Shown here: in pieces, positions 1-47,834 of the stretch
Position numbering within the stretch: the first letter of the stretch is position 1
Layout of the letters: each line of letters begins with the position of its first letter
Assembly (NCBI GenBank): GCA_014804485.1
Contig: JAAUZT010000002.1
Span: 1 to 64,000, forward strand
Reading direction: 5' to 3'
Length of the DNA stretch: 64,000 bases
Source: Lachnospiraceae bacterium
GTDB lineage: Bacteria > Bacillota > Clostridia > Lachnospirales > Lachnospiraceae
Made by a program: the position numbers and the translations under genes
Notes under the pieces: model-generated
What the model saw: only the letters and a program-made list of their open reading frames with translations
Databases searched by the model: none
Told to the model about the DNA's origin: nothing

Positions 1-117
1 AATACACCTTCTTTAATCCGGACTATACCGTCGGTTTTGGAATTTCACCAAACCCCGCGCTTTCGCGCCCGCGGACTATAACCGCCGATCGGGAATTTCA
101 CCCTGCCCTGAAGACAT
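1..117 (-). promoter_or_regulatory. FMN riboswitch (RFN element)
   Basis: Read on the minus strand, the segment carries the conserved RFN core in order: CAGGGTGAAATTCCCGA, GGCGGTTATAGTCCGC, a GC-rich variable hairpin, TGGTGAAATTCC, then ACCGACGGTATAGTCCGGAT. These are the junction signatures of the FMN aptamer. It is transcribed leftwards, so the controlled gene (usually riboflavin biosynthesis or a riboflavin transporter) lies beyond the left edge of the window and cannot be named. The aptamer looks complete; any expression platform is outside the window. Confidence 0.95.
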
Positions 118-141
118 TACTACTATTCAATTGTTTATGTG

Positions 142-7644: not shown

Positions 7645-10023
7645 ATGATTCGGGAATATAATCAAAACTATGTGTTAGAGACAGACAATACGACATATTG
7701 CTTTCGTGTGCTTCCTACGGGACACTTAGAGCATTTGTATTACGGAAGGAAGATTACGCTGACGGATGACGAAGATATGAAGGCGTTGGTCGAGAAGCAC
7801 ACATTCATGCCCGGCAATACCAATGCATACAATCAGGAAAACACCACGTTTTCGCTGGAGGATATCCGATTGGAGATGTCTTCTTACGGCAAAGGGGATA
7901 TTAGGGAGCCTTTTATCGAGGTGATTCATGCGGACGGCAGTTACACATCGGATTTTCTGTTCGAGTCGGCACTGATCACGAAGGGCAAGGAAGCATATAA
8001 CACCCTTCCGGCATCCTATGATGAAGAAGGAGCGGTGGATCATCTGTGCGTCGTGTTAAAAGACCGGCAGTATGCGCTTACCTTGGAACTGCACTATTAT
8101 GTATATGAGGGCTGTGATGTGATTGCCAGAAGCGCACGCCTCATTAACGACAGCGAGGACGAGATCAAGCTCACAAGACTCATGAGCGCACAGGTGGATT
8201 TTGATACGCCGGAATATGTGCTTACAACGTTTAACGGTGCGTGGGCGAGAGAGATGAAGCGGACGGATACGCGCCTTAAGTCGGGCAGACATGTGAACGC
8301 CTCCTATACCGGAACGTCCTCTAACCGCGCCAATCCGTTTGTCATGCTGAGTAAGCCGGAAACTTCGGAAGACTTGGGCGACTGCTACGGATTCAACCTG
8401 ATCTACAGCGGCAATCACTATGAGGCGGCAGAAGTCAGCGGATATGGCAAGACGAGGTTGGTCATGGGGATCAATCCGCAGTCTTTCTGCTTCCGGATCG
8501 GTGTGGGAGAGTGTTTTGAGGCGCCGGAGGCGGTGATGAGCTATTCTCATGAGGGATACAACGGAATGAGCCGGCATATGCACCGGTTTGTGCGGGAGCA
8601 TATCGTGCGGGGCAAGTGGAAACACAAGACTCGTCCGATTCTGCTCAACAGCTGGGAAGCATCTTATTTTGATATCAATGAGCGTAAACTCTTACAGCTT
8701 GCGAAAGCCGGAAAAGAGGTGGGTATTGAGCTTTTTGTGATGGATGACGGATGGTTCGGCAGCAGGGATGACGATACGCAGTCACTGGGCGATTGGGAAG
8801 TGAACCGGAAGAAACTGCCTGACGGCGTGGAAGGGCTGGCGCGGAAAGTAAAAGATCTGGGACTGGATTTCGGAATCTGGGTGGAGCCGGAGATGGTCAA
8901 TGTCAAAAGCAAATTATATGAGGAACATCCGGACTGGGTTCTCATGATTCCGGACAAGCCTCATTCCGAGGGAAGGAATCAGAGAATTCTGGATCTGACG
9001 AGAAAAGAAGTTCAGGATTACATTATAGAAGAGATGAGCCGCGTATTCTCTTCGGCGGATATCGCCTATGTGAAATGGGACATGAACCGCACCGTGACGG
9101 ATTATTATTCGTCGGCGCTGTCCGCTGAGCGACAGGGAGAGGTGGCGCACCGTTATGTGATGGGGTTGTACCGCTGTATGAAGGAGCTGACGGAACGGTT
9201 TCCGGAGATACTGTTCGAAGGCTGCGCGGCGGGCGGGAACCGATTCGATTTGGGGATTTTATGCTATTTCCCGCAGATATGGGCAAGCGACGATACGGAT
9301 GCCTTGTGCCGGACGGAGATTCAGACAGGGTACAGCTACGGTTATCCGATGTCTGTGGTCAGCGCCCACGTATCCGCCTGTCCGAACCATCAGACACTCA
9401 GGACGACGCCGTTGGAGACTCGCTTCCATGTGGCATGTTTCGGTATCTGCGGCTACGAGTGCAATTTCTGCGATATGAAGAAAGAAGAGCTGGCTGCGGT
9501 AAAAGCGCAGATCGAGCTGTATAAGGAGTGGCGCGAAGTGCTGCAATGGGGCACATTCTATCGTGGCAGGACATTTTCAGAGCAGGGAGACGGCAGTTGT
9601 CTGAGCGGAAATAACGGCAATGTGACAGAGTGGACTTGTGTGTCGGAAGATCGTTCGAAAGCCGTGGGATTTCTGTTGCAGAAGCTGGTGGCGCCGAACA
9701 CACAATATGCGTTCTATAAGGCAAAAGGGCTTGATTCCGAACGGAGATATCATTTCTACAACAGAACGTTGAAATATGATGTGAGGGAATTCGGAGATCT
9801 GGTCAACACCGTATCGCCGATCCATATTAAACAGGATTCCCTGCTGCACAGGACCCTCGCCAGGTTCGTGAAGATGGACGGGGAAACGGAAGATCTCTAC
9901 GCCTACGGCGACGCGCTGATGTACGGCGGTGTCAGACTAAAACAGGCCTTCGGCGGCACGGGTTACAGCGATGAAGTGAGACATTTTCCGGATTTTGCCT
10001 CCAGAATTTATTTTATGGAATAG
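7645..10023 (+). CDS. GH36 alpha-galactosidase
   Basis: A 792-aa enzyme with a full-length GH36 architecture: N-terminal beta-supersandwich, (beta/alpha)8 barrel, C-terminal beta domain. The barrel shows FVMDDGWFGSRDDD, GIWVEPEMV and YVKWDMNR with the nucleophile Asp479, then IWASDDTDA with the acid/base Asp549. CPNHQTLRTTPLETRF is also typical. The spacing matches characterised Bacillus-type enzymes (Asp478/Asp548 in Geobacillus AgaA). It has no signal peptide, so it acts in the cytoplasm on imported alpha-1,6-galactosides. The preceding GPH symporter is its likely supplier. A short terminator follows at 10042. Confidence 0.95.
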   Translation: MIREYNQNYVLETDNTTYCFRVLPTGHLEHLYYGRKITLTDDEDMKALVEKHTFMPGNTNAYNQENTTFSLEDIRLEMSSYGKGDIREPFIEVIHADGSYTSDFLFESALITKGKEAYNTLPASYDEEGAVDHLCVVLKDRQYALTLELHYYVYEGCDVIARSARLINDSEDEIKLTRLMSAQVDFDTPEYVLTTFNGAWAREMKRTDTRLKSGRHVNASYTGTSSNRANPFVMLSKPETSEDLGDCYGFNLIYSGNHYEAAEVSGYGKTRLVMGINPQSFCFRIGVGECFEAPEAVMSYSHEGYNGMSRHMHRFVREHIVRGKWKHKTRPILLNSWEASYFDINERKLLQLAKAGKEVGIELFVMDDGWFGSRDDDTQSLGDWEVNRKKLPDGVEGLARKVKDLGLDFGIWVEPEMVNVKSKLYEEHPDWVLMIPDKPHSEGRNQRILDLTRKEVQDYIIEEMSRVFSSADIAYVKWDMNRTVTDYYSSALSAERQGEVAHRYVMGLYRCMKELTERFPEILFEGCAAGGNRFDLGILCYFPQIWASDDTDALCRTEIQTGYSYGYPMSVVSAHVSACPNHQTLRTTPLETRFHVACFGICGYECNFCDMKKEELAAVKAQIELYKEWREVLQWGTFYRGRTFSEQGDGSCLSGNNGNVTEWTCVSEDRSKAVGFLLQKLVAPNTQYAFYKAKGLDSERRYHFYNRTLKYDVREFGDLVNTVSPIHIKQDSLLHRTLARFVKMDGETEDLYAYGDALMYGGVRLKQAFGGTGYSDEVRHFPDFASRIYFME

Positions 10024-10041
10024 GAAAACGCAACAGAGGGT

Positions 10042-10069
10042 AGAGGGGATCGTCGATCTCCTCTTTATT
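10042..10069 (+). terminator. Terminator after GH36
   Basis: AGAGGGGATC/GATCTCCTCT forms a 10-bp stem (one G-T) with a 3-nt loop followed by TTATT. The T-tract is short. Confidence 0.6.
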
Positions 10070-10112
10070 GTATAGGATTTAGGGTTAAAAGGTGCATGTT
10101 GTAAACTGGGGT

Positions 10113-10343
10113 GGCAGCTTGCACAAAATGTTCCTGTAGCTGTCTGGCTCCGTCATATGGATTTTCTAAAATATTCCGGCAAGGTTATGCAAATGGACGC
10201 AACCGCCCTCTATTCGCCATCCGGGCTCATTATGGGCTTTTCGGGACATCCATGTCCCGAAATTTCTGGGTATTGAACGGAATATTAAGAAAATCTCATA
10301 TTCCTGCGCATGACAGCTTCGGGAACATTTTGTGCAAGCTGCC
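10113..10343 (+). repeat. Family-1 structured dispersed repeat, copy 1
   Basis: Arms 10113-10144 and 10312-10343 are complementary over 32 positions with two exceptions (outer part GGCAGCTTGCACAAAATG). Inside, ATTTTCT...ATATTCCG pairs with CGGAATATT...AGAAAAT. The core holds CGCCCTCTATTCGCCATCC and the perfect hairpin CGGGACAT/ATGTCCCG. Copies at 42563-42858 (+) and 47548-47778 (-) share the core nearly base for base but have different, internally complementary arms. Weak pairing continues outside the arms to about 10090 and 10367. No coding potential is evident. Confidence 0.85.
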
Positions 10344-10419
10344 TATGAAAGTTTATTTAGGTACCGGTTGACACCTGAATCTGTATAGGAGATTTCTCCG
10401 TTTTTTTAGTTCGTGAATT

Positions 10420-10452
10420 GAGTCTTGCAGTCCAGCAAGGCTCGATTTTTTT
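10420..10452 (+). terminator. Strong plus-strand terminator after repeat copy 1
   Basis: GAGTCTTGC/GCAAGGCTC (one wobble) is followed by GATTTTTTT. It faces plus-strand transcription although the last plus-strand gene ended 400 bp earlier. This leaves open that the family-1 repeat is itself part of a transcript ending here. A weaker GGAG/CTCC hairpin with seven Ts precedes it at 10388-10407. Confidence 0.7.
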
Positions 10453-10459
10453 ATCTGAT

Positions 10460-11035
10460 TTACATAAACTGTGTAAAATCGAGATACAGGTCCGGATAAA
10501 TCCCCGCTTTTACAGGTTCGGAGAAGGGATGGATCACAGGTCCTTCTCCATGCTCAAAGTCATATATTGTAACGAATTTCTGCTTCGGATCGATGATCCA
10601 GTATTCCCGAACGCCATTCTCCTGATAGAGTGAGAGCTTCCGCCCGTAATCCATGATTTTATTAGATGGTGAGGTGATCTCAATCACCCAGTCCGGCGCA
10701 CCGTGACAGCCCTTTTCGTCCAGCTTATCCGGTTTGCAGACGACGGAAAGATCAGGCTCCACATAATTGCGGGTATCGTCAGCTATATATACTCCGAATG
10801 GCAGAAATACCTCGCACGGACCATTATTCTTCTTAATATACATGTAGATCTGTACATGAAGTTCTCCGAGAATTCTCTGGTGCGTTACGGACGGGGATTC
10901 CATAATAAACATCTGGCCGTCGATCAGTTCGGCACGTTCTCCGTCCGGCAGCGCCTCAATATCCGCGGTTGTGTAGGATTTGCCTCCTTCAATGGTCATA
11001 AACTGTTCCTCTCTTTCAATTAATGCTGCTTCCAT
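10460..11035 (-). CDS. Uma2 family (DUF820) putative endonuclease
   Basis: A 191-aa protein with the Uma2 layout: YTTADIEALPDGERAELIDGQ near the N-terminus, then SVTHQRILGEL, a PD-(D/E)XK core with VEPDLSVVC and WVIEITSPSNKIMDYGRKL, and GVREYWIIDP. Acidic and Lys residues typical of the nuclease-like core are present. The family is widespread, but its physiological role is not established. The start is set by AAGGAGGG seven bases before the ATG. It is a single gene, with a CGGCAGAAG inverted repeat between its likely promoter and RBS. Confidence 0.85.
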   Translation of the reverse strand: MEAALIEREEQFMTIEGGKSYTTADIEALPDGERAELIDGQMFIMESPSVTHQRILGELHVQIYMYIKKNNGPCEVFLPFGVYIADDTRNYVEPDLSVVCKPDKLDEKGCHGAPDWVIEITSPSNKIMDYGRKLSLYQENGVREYWIIDPKQKFVTIYDFEHGEGPVIHPFSEPVKAGIYPDLYLDFTQFM

Positions 11036-11052
11036 AGTGATGCCCTCCTTTT

Positions 11053-11119
11053 CGGCAGAAGGTTCCTATGGATAACTTCTGCCGCTATTTAATTATGATT
11101 GTGAGTAAAGCGGCAGAAG
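11053..11119. promoter_or_regulatory. CGGCAGAAG repeats upstream of Uma2 gene
   Basis: CGGCAGAAG (11053-11061) and CTTCTGCCG (11076-11084) form a perfect 9-bp inverted repeat just upstream of the RBS. A third direct copy lies at 11111-11119. It could be an operator or a leader hairpin. Confidence 0.5.
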
Positions 11120-42562: not shown

Positions 42563-42858
42563 GAATATCAAAAGGTGCAATTGTGAAAGTGCAGGGGCAT
42601 ATTGCATAAAATGTTCTCTTGTGTCGGGCTTCGTCATATGGATTTTCTATAATATTCCGGACAAGTTGAGATAGGGGACGAAACCGCCCTCTATTCGCCA
42701 TCCGGGCTCATGTCGGGCTTTCCGGGACATCCATGTCCCGAAATTTCTGTTATGTTGAACGGAATATTAAGAAAATCTCATATTCCAACGCAGGACGACT
42801 GCGTGAACATTTTATGCAATATGCCTACGGAGTTTAGTAGAGGCGCCTTTTGATATTC
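42563..42858 (+). repeat. Family-1 structured dispersed repeat, copy 2
   Basis: The outermost pairing is GAATATCAAAAGGTGC (42563-42578) with 42843-42858, one wobble. The next arm, GGCATATTGCATAAAATGTT (42596 on), pairs perfectly over 21 bp with 42804-42824. Core identical in order and nearly in sequence to copy 1: TCATATGGATTTTCTATAAT, CGCCCTCTATTCGCCATCC, GGGACATCCATGTCCC, GGAATATTAAGAAAATCTC. The arms differ from copies 1 and 3 but keep complementarity. Confidence 0.85.
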
Positions 42859-47374: not shown

Positions 47375-47547
47375 ATGCCAGAAATCAGGTAATAAGCAGA
47401 GAAACAGGGAACCGACCGCCGCGGATAGTTTGGATTCTGTATGGCGACTTGTGAAGATATTGAGGTGTGTATGGCGTTATATAATGTGAGAAGAGTTTTT
47501 AAAGCTATAAGATTAGGGCATCAAAAAGTGCATGAGACAAGTACTGA

Positions 47548-47778
47548 GGGCAGATCACACAAAAGGTTCCCGCAGTTGTCTTGCGTAGGAATATGAGATT
47601 TTCTTAATATTCCATTCAATATCCAGAAATTTCGGGACATGGATGTCCCGAAAAGCCCGTAATGAGCCCGGATGGCGAATAGAGGGCGGTTTCGTCCGTT
47701 GTCACAACTTCACCGGAATATTTAGAAAATCCATATGACGAAGCCGATAACTGCGGGAACCTTTTGTGTGATCTGCCC
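47548..47778 (-). repeat. Family-1 structured dispersed repeat, copy 3 (inverted)
   Basis: Arms 47548-47580 (beginning GGGCAGATCACACAAAAG) and 47746-47778 are complementary at 32 of 33 positions, with a G-T wobble at the last. Read on the minus strand, the core is nearly identical to copies 1 and 2, including TCATATGGATTTTCTAAA, CGCCCTCTATTCGCCATCC and GGGACATCCATGTCCC. With copy 2 in the opposite orientation it flanks the DUF6465-hydEGF block. Outside the arms CAAAAAG (47523) can pair with CTTTTTG (47799). Confidence 0.85.
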
Positions 47779-47834
47779 GTGCAATTTTACGCAGCTCCCT
47801 TTTTGTGCAAATTTTTTTCTATTCAAAATATATG

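What the first reader, a model, noticed from the sequence alone, without database searches (positions are those of the whole stretch)
10113..10343. Family-1 dispersed element whose long terminal arms covary between copies
Three roughly 230-300 bp elements (10113-10343 +, 42563-42858 +, 47548-47778 -) share a nearly identical core of about 150 bp. Their 21-33 bp terminal arms differ between copies yet pair within each copy: GGCAGCTTGCACAAAATG, GGCATATTGCATAAAATG and GGGCAGATCACACAAAAG each meet their own complement on the other side. Ordinary transposon ends are identical between copies; arms that change together indicate selection for folding as RNA or single-stranded DNA. No ORF or known RNA class explains it. 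It may be an undescribed structured ncRNA family or a hairpin-type non-autonomous element.
Basis: partly seen in the sequence, partly recalled or inferred. Interest (0 to 1): 0.85.

Follow-up and report, generated by a model that had tools for sequence, protein, structure and literature searches.

The report
Mobile hairpin carrying CsrA-type RNA sites
The repeat is a small jumping DNA element of gut Clostridia whose centre is a known but unexplained RNA motif (TwoAYGGAY), and that centre looks like a landing pad for CsrA, a protein that controls motility and metabolism.

Summary
The element is one of 33 genomic matches of Rfam RF01731, TwoAYGGAY, on the minus strand, so a known RNA class does explain it. 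Its arms do covary: in 28 own-genome copies 17 of 22 arm pairs changed on both sides, 0 of 500 shuffles as high. New here: it is mobile. Outside the arms lie terminal inverted repeats (GATTCGGGTGTCAAAAGG) and 7-bp target duplications (30 of 75 elements exact, 47 within one mismatch; shuffled mean 4.4). A same-genus genome has the empty site. The core is in 18 of 18 full-size and 0 of 12 shorter elements with these ends. Function: two hairpin loops hold near-invariant GGA 27-31 nt apart, a layout a CsrA dimer can bridge. CsrA occurs in 44 of 45 TwoAYGGAY genomes against 110 of 254 others; but flagellin occurs in 45 of 45, so CsrA is not separated from motility. CsrA binding was proposed in 2014; expression and binding are untested here. 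Whether RNA selection or DNA copying keeps the arms paired is unsettled. No transposase was found.

The parts
10076..10381 (-). Complete mobile element, copy 1 (strand given is that of the RNA motif)
   Evidence: Empty site in G355 / L160; terminal repeats and target duplication read directly in the sequence
10069..10075 (.). Target-site duplication, left copy TGTATAG (two more nt, GA, are also shared)
   Evidence: 7 bp is the family's length
10382..10388 (.). Target-site duplication, right copy TGTATAG
10076..10095 (+). Left terminal inverted repeat, a changed form of GATTCGGGTGTCAAAAGGTGC
10360..10381 (-). Right terminal inverted repeat
10113..10144 (+). Left covarying arm
10312..10343 (-). 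Right covarying arm
10145..10311 (-). TwoAYGGAY RNA core (RF01731, 104.6 bits)
10242..10259 (-). Hairpin 1, CGGGACAUGGAUGUCCCG; GGA at 10249-10251. Its loop agrees with the CsrA SELEX consensus RUACARGGAUGU at ACA, GGA and UGU
   Evidence: Sequence; conservation; consensus quoted in PMC7652899
10216..10226 (-). Tip of hairpin 2, GCCCGGAUGGC; GGA at 10220-10222, 29 nt from the GGA of hairpin 1
42563..42858 (-). Copy 2, between its terminal repeats GAATATCAAAAGGTGC / GCGCCTTTTGATATTC; RF01731 at 42626-42793 minus (99.2 bits). I saw no clear target duplication
47511..47780 (+). Copy 3; RF01731 at 47581-47746 plus (111.7 bits); low-coordinate terminal repeat GATTAGGGCATCAAAAAGTGC from 47511; the other end (toward about 47817) is decayed

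Best explanation
A non-autonomous, MITE-type transposable element that carries a CsrA-type RNA. Shown: about 305 bp, terminal inverted repeats, 7-bp target duplication, an empty site at one locus, 33 core matches in this genome, insertion often just after terminators, arms that change as complementary pairs. Inferred: a transposase acting in trans moves it; the core, when transcribed on the minus strand, offers two GGA-loop hairpins to one CsrA dimer, so each copy is a CsrA-binding RNA spread through the chromosome, acting as a decoy or as a local control site; the long arms clamp the core into one hairpin whatever transcript it lands in. Least certain: what keeps the arms complementary. Copying of one arm from the other (palindrome correction) fits this genome best, selection for pairing remains open.
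For: Mobility: empty site with target duplication in G355; 75 distinct elements with these ends, 7-bp duplication exact in 30 and within 1 mismatch in 47, shuffled mean 4.4, exact 8-bp 0; RF01731 in 18 of 18 elements of 295-315 bp and in 0 of 12 loci with elements of 48-244 bp; 38 of 45 positive family genomes have 2 or more matches although only 9 candidates per genome were scored. Covariation: 17 of 22 arm pairs changed on both sides, 41 double-change cells against 5.4 shuffled; parsimony on a tree of the core: 35 paired events, 13 one-sided from a Watson-Crick pair (2 G-U, 7 A-C, 4 other) and 3 of other kinds. Own-arm complementarity 0.83 against 0.59 with swapped partners, 128 copies. CsrA: 8 of the 10 best-conserved of 167 core columns (one copy from each of 30 genomes) lie in the two GGA loops and their closing pairs; two or more GGA hairpins in 111 of 129 cores on the RNA strand against 6 of 129 on the other; GGA in both loops at the aligned places in 112 of 129, 27-31 nt apart, inside the 10-63 nt bridging range quoted in PMC7652899; CsrA in 44 of 45 TwoAYGGAY genomes against 110 of 254 others, p 1.7e-13, and 20 of 24 against 66 of 257 outside the window's family, p 3e-8; CsrA-like proteins read in 7 of 8 loci, one of them cut by its contig end.
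Against: Flagellin is present in 45 of 45 TwoAYGGAY genomes, so the CsrA association may only mark motile lineages. One family genome (G168) and four class-level genomes (G531, G572, G611, G629) have the element without a detected CsrA; all are drafts, but most copies read from G531 and G572 keep GGA loops. In 9 of 9 copies of G393 the simple hairpin test finds only one GGA hairpin. The hairpin stems (8-10 bp) are longer than most CsrA SELEX winners, four or fewer contiguous pairs. Promoter-like sites not above chance, no expression data. 26 of 56 copies are antisense to both neighbours against 9 in sense with both, so many may not be transcribed as the RNA strand. About 17 of 33 own-genome copies keep a mismatched inner arm segment (counted by eye). 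G-U exceeds A-C in the long stem of G122 (26:6), G176 (52:2), G042 (20:6) and G086 (19:13), though not G000 (5:14), with pairs chosen by a folding program that favours G-U: this speaks for RNA pairing and against arm copying. The Fisher tests ignore relatedness. No transposase found.
Confidence: 0.6

Rival explanations
1. The conserved structure works as folded single-stranded or cruciform DNA, recognised by the transposase or another DNA enzyme; 'TwoAYGGAY RNA' is misnamed. Loops are contacted bases, stems only need to pair.
For: Isolated arm mismatches are 57 G-T against 42 A-C in 127 copies (42 against 41 without G086), where the FMN riboswitch control gave 26 against 1 on its own pairs. 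G-U in the two core hairpins: 0 of 244 pairs in 10 Infernal-aligned sequences. A hairpin-deleted derivative exists in G340, as expected of a palindrome that folds in DNA.
Against: Elements with the same ends but no core carry the same 7-bp duplications, so the core is not needed to move. On all 129 copies with the Rfam structure G-U is 229 against 132 A-C; the long stem shows a G-U excess in 4 of 5 genomes; with Infernal the outer core stem has 8 G-U against 2 A-C, and TwoAYGGAY against FMN is not significant (9:4 against 10:1, p 0.33). The GGA loops and their spacing match an RNA-binding protein.
Confidence: 0.1
2. A purely selfish element: the hairpin is a by-product of a long palindrome and the core has no host-related role; CsrA co-occurs because motile Clostridia share the element by descent and transfer.
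For: Flagellin associates as well as CsrA does (45 of 45). Other terminal repeats flank the core in two other families. High copy numbers.
Against: The two GGA loops hold 8 of the 10 best-conserved core columns, with a spacing of 27-31 nt in the 112 copies that have both (each GGA was sought within 4 nt of its aligned place).
Confidence: 0.18
3. A domesticated terminator or insulator: long hairpins after genes that stop read-through or stabilise 3' ends.
For: 24 of 65 elements lie directly after a terminator-like hairpin (control 0.018 per side); 57 of 59 copies are not inside a long ORF.
Against: The terminator precedes the element and looks like a target preference; in G355 the site without the element keeps the upstream terminator hairpin. 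A terminator does not need two conserved GGA loops or a fixed core.
Confidence: 0.07

Closest known systems
TwoAYGGAY RNA, RF01731 (Weinberg 2010, PMC2864571; only a table row seen, in passages)
   Same: Core sequence, structure and length; all three window copies exceed the curated threshold
   Different: The Rfam model ends where the long arms begin. Mobility, terminal repeats and duplications are not mentioned in the passages read. PMC7657543 notes extra covarying pairs that lengthen a helix (passage)
CsrA-sequestering sRNAs (CsrB, CsrC, RsmX/Y/Z)
   Same: GGA in hairpin loops, spacing that a CsrA dimer can bridge; TwoAYGGAY already proposed as a Clostridia counterpart (PMC4333381, passages)
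   Different: Two sites per copy, many dispersed mobile copies; expression and binding not shown
Bacterial MITEs such as BOX, SPRITE, and the Coxiella QMITEs from which sRNAs are thought to originate (PMC10969869, passages)
   Same: Short, non-coding, terminal inverted repeats, target duplication, strong secondary structure
   Different: Carries a conserved core that is found with other terminal repeats in other families; arms vary as complementary pairs
Quasi-palindrome correction / gene conversion between palindrome arms (recalled, no call)
   Same: Would keep two arms complementary while their sequence drifts
   Different: Here only inferred from the rarity of intermediates in one genome

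Membership tests
TwoAYGGAY (RF01731) | Match to the covariance model above the gathering score | tested here: met
   3 of 3 window copies, 99.2-111.7 bits against 43; 33 in the genome
TwoAYGGAY (RF01731) | Two AYGGAY hairpin loops | tested here: met
   GGA in both loops in 112 of 129 copies; in this window the second loop reads CCGGAU rather than AYGGAY
TwoAYGGAY (RF01731) | Transcribed as RNA | not testable with these tools
   No expression data
MITE | Terminal inverted repeats shared by copies | tested here: met
   G176 has 72 sites at up to 2 mismatches, reversed-pattern control 0
MITE | Target-site duplication of fixed length | tested here: met
   7 bp: 30 exact and 47 within 1 mismatch of 75 elements
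MITE | Empty site in a relative | tested here: met
   G355 / L160, one locus tested; in G325, G341 and G343 the missing stretch is larger than the element, so they do not count
MITE | No coding capacity | tested here: met
   Core lengths of 28 own-genome copies spread over all three residues modulo 3 (10, 10, 8)
MITE | Related autonomous element with the same ends | tested here: not met
   None in the 113 loci: three longer pairs of ends were seen, each with a nearer partner; none on reading the sites listed for 4 genomes. Many MITE families lack a known parent (recalled), so this is not taken as disproof
CsrA-binding regulatory RNA | GGA in hairpin loops at bridgeable spacing | tested here: met
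   range from PMC7652899
CsrA-binding regulatory RNA | CsrA in the same genome | tested here: met
   44 of 45 and 24 of 28 genomes; five exceptions named
CsrA-binding regulatory RNA | Binds CsrA and changes its activity | not testable with these tools
   Needs a bench test

The most novel reading that the evidence does not exclude
A transposable element that spreads CsrA-binding RNA modules: tens of copies per genome form a dispersed, evolving sponge or put new neighbours under CsrA control, so that a selfish element tunes the motility and metabolic switch of gut Clostridia. Its core is a reusable cargo taken up by several unrelated terminal-repeat systems, and its arms may be kept paired by DNA copying rather than by selection on each base pair.
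Probability: 0.3. Interest if true: 0.82.

Novelty: new variant of a known kind. Interest (0 to 1): 0.6.

Why it matters
TwoAYGGAY was reported in 2010, and the passages I read give it no tested function. Showing that it is the cargo of mobile palindromes explains its scattered, multi-copy distribution, warns against annotating each copy as a cis-regulator (its Rfam type), and gives a concrete test of the 2014 CsrA proposal with a new line of support, genome co-occurrence. If copies are transcribed and bind CsrA, a mobile element would be a large source of CsrA sites in Lachnospiraceae. It is also a natural case for asking how long palindromes keep their arms complementary.

Tried and rejected
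Protein-coding element: rejected, copies differ in frame. Spacer-like acquisition of arm sequences: rejected; arm identity falls smoothly with core identity and 0 of 353 copy pairs with core identity of at least 0.85 had unrelated arms. Arms as inverted copies of the target: rejected, since terminal repeats and the empty-site boundary lie outside them. The ends in print: the one paper holding the string was on wheat (listing). T-tract near 10446 as transcript end: outside the element. 'DNA-level, not RNA' as a firm reading of the arms: held at first, given up as unsettled after the recount; the DNA rival was lowered from 0.15 to 0.1 and the selfish rival raised from 0.15 to 0.18 on that account.

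Errors made and repaired: loci from the genome search are in contig orientation, so 12 of 129 copies were reversed, and some FMN control sequences. Repeated with the right orientation; only those numbers are used. The isolated-mismatch count (86 G-T, 77 A-C) became 57 and 42, which also counts only the first 45 columns; 15 and 1 of these come from one genome, G086. The parsimony rests on one tree without support values.

Rows dropped: 5 partly matching G000 copies (L020, L024, L026, L029, L030) and 7 fragments (L031-L037) were left out of the 28-copy alignment; one search had 33. One of 30 FMN sequences (L306) was left out. In one search, 2 of 129 copies fell below the arm score. The 16 genomes were chosen for having 7 or more matches.

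Full report
WHAT IS THERE. The element at 10113-10343 and its two relatives are real. Rfam places RF01731, TwoAYGGAY, on the minus strand at 10145-10311 (104.6 bits), on the minus strand at 42626-42793 and on the plus strand at 47581-47746. The genome (3.97 Mb, 58 contigs, 85% complete) has 33 such matches. The claim that no known RNA class explains it is therefore wrong.

ANATOMY. From the outside in: target duplication; terminal inverted repeat close to GATTCGGGTGTCAAAAGGTGC; a mostly unpaired stretch of about 17 bp; an arm of 22-32 bp; the 167-bp core. The strand folds far better than shuffles (-123 kcal/mol against -72.3, z -10.0). A search of 60 same-genus genomes with 9300-11100 matched 51. 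One of them, G355, has the empty site: its sequence runs through TGTATAGGA once, where the window has it on both sides of the insert. G325, G341 and G343 lack a longer stretch and prove nothing. G340 has the same insertion with the hairpin deleted between short matching bases.

MOBILITY. A scan of the genome collection for the 18-base end stopped at its limit with 113 stretches; of the 80 records listed, 71 are titled Lachnospiraceae or a genus that I recall belongs to it, 9 otherwise. In all loci held, 75 distinct elements are bounded by two such ends; 30 have an exact 7-bp duplication and 47 one within a mismatch, against 4.4 when partners are shuffled, and none an exact 8-bp one. Forty-one of the 75 fall in the 300-319 bp bin. 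Rfam finds TwoAYGGAY in 18 of 18 full-size elements tested and in 0 of 12 loci with shorter elements. So the core is cargo, and the ends suffice for movement. Elements often sit just after terminator-like hairpins (24 of 65, control 0.018 per side). No element with these ends and a transposase was found.

DISTRIBUTION. In 299 genomes of the family, 45 have the core, 38 of them two or more times although only 9 candidates per genome were scored. Sixteen with 7 or more, searched again with laxer filters, have 7-50 matches each. In 291 genomes of the class, 28 have it, 20 above the curated cut-off. In two families outside the window's own, copies carry other terminal repeats: G393 ends in CTGCGATTCGTAATAT-like repeats with duplications of about 8-10 bp, and G572 in GAAGAATGCGACA-like repeats (read by eye).

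ARMS. On 28 own-genome copies, 22 arm pairs: 97.7% of cells paired (shuffled 89.8), 17 pairs and 41 cells with changes on both sides (shuffled 4.0 and 5.4), covariation score 0.241 (0.086), 0 of 500 shuffles as high on any measure; partners slid by 1-3 columns reach at most 9 such cells. On a tree of the core alone, parsimony gives 35 changes from one Watson-Crick pair to another and 13 one-sided changes away from pairing: 2 to G-U, 7 to A-C, 4 other; 3 events were of other kinds. Arm identity tracks core identity; 0 of 353 close pairs have replaced arms. So the arms drift gradually while staying paired.

WHAT KEEPS THEM PAIRED is unsettled. RNA selection should leave many G-U and few A-C intermediates; copying of one arm from the other should not. 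For copying: the own-genome events above; isolated arm mismatches in 127 of 129 copies, 57 G-T and 42 A-C, or 42 and 41 without G086; the core with one copy per genome, 50 and 37, against 26 and 1 in the FMN riboswitch control (29 of 30 sequences); 0 G-U in 244 hairpin pairs of 10 Infernal-aligned sequences. Against: all 129 copies with the Rfam structure, 229 G-U and 132 A-C; long-stem pairs chosen by RNAalifold, G122 26 and 6, G176 52 and 2, G042 20 and 6, G086 19 and 13, G000 5 and 14 (the program favours G-U and the counts are copies, not events); the Infernal comparison, 9 and 4 against 10 and 1, is not significant. About half of the own-genome copies (17 of 33, by eye) keep a mismatched inner arm segment, which copying has not mended.

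FUNCTION. With one copy from each of 30 genomes, 8 of the 10 best-conserved of 167 core columns lie in the two GGA loops and their closing pairs. Two or more hairpins with GGA in the loop are found in 111 of 129 cores on the RNA strand and in 6 of 129 on the other. GGA stands within 4 nt of both aligned places in 112 of 129, 27-31 nt apart. A CsrA review gives the SELEX consensus RUACARGGAUGU, GGA in hairpin loops, and bridging of two sites 10-63 nt apart (PMC7652899, passages). TwoAYGGAY was proposed as a CsrA-binding RNA in 2014 on motif grounds (PMC4333381, passages). Here a new test: in the same 299 genomes CsrA (PF02599) is found in 154, in 44 of the 45 with TwoAYGGAY and 110 of the 254 without (p 1.7e-13). 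In the class sample it is 24 of 28 against 71 of 263, and outside the window's family 20 of 24 against 66 of 257. The control is sobering: flagellin (PF00669) is in 156 of 299 and in 45 of 45 TwoAYGGAY genomes, and 151 genomes have both, so CsrA cannot be told from motility. None of these tests corrects for relatedness. In G393 the simple hairpin test found one GGA hairpin, not two, in 9 of 9 copies. CsrA-like proteins were read in 7 of 8 loci looked at, one cut by its contig end; the script missed the eighth.

CONTEXT. 57 of 59 copies lie outside long ORFs; of 56 with a neighbour on both sides, 26 are antisense to both, 14 between converging genes, 9 in sense with both, 7 between diverging ones (ORFs predicted mechanically).

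LITERATURE. Searching TwoAYGGAY found 7 papers, 5 listed; passages were read in all five and none speaks of mobility. Listings of further searches showed nothing on it. Only open-licence papers are held, so priority is not established. PMC10969869 was read in passages.

VERDICT. A known RNA motif turns out to be the cargo of a mobile palindrome. Mobility and arm covariation are shown; CsrA binding is the best-supported function but is inferred; what keeps the arms paired is open.

Noticed in passing
window 2-119, minus strand: FMN riboswitch (RF00050, 104.7 bits); used as the reason to take FMN sequences as controls.
   Followed up: partly
L031-L034 (G000 contigs C43, C45, C38, C10): A subfamily in which the GGA loop of hairpin 1 is replaced by an extra stem-loop of about 28 bp; four contigs end in it, so assembly probably broke there.
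   Followed up: no
L116, L117, L119, L123 (G086), L127, L128 (G008), L129, L130, L132, L133: Pairs of TwoAYGGAY copies in divergent orientation about 150-400 bp apart, recalling REP doublets.
   Followed up: partly
L168, L176, L180, L197, L212, L245 and others: Very short elements (38-130 bp) with the same ends and, in several, 7-bp duplications; no TwoAYGGAY core in the 12 loci tested.
   Followed up: partly
65 elements in several loci: 24 of 65 elements begin directly after a terminator-like hairpin, suggesting a transposase that targets terminator T-tracts.
   Followed up: partly
L156 (G340): Same insertion as window copy 1 with the hairpin deleted between short matching bases: a hairpin-loss derivative.
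   Followed up: no
L131 (G166): Two same-orientation copies that are tandem duplicates, 372 bp at 95% identity.
   Followed up: no
G393, G572 (L316-L329): TwoAYGGAY copies with other terminal repeats in two other families of the class: the core seems to be cargo of several end types.
   Followed up: partly
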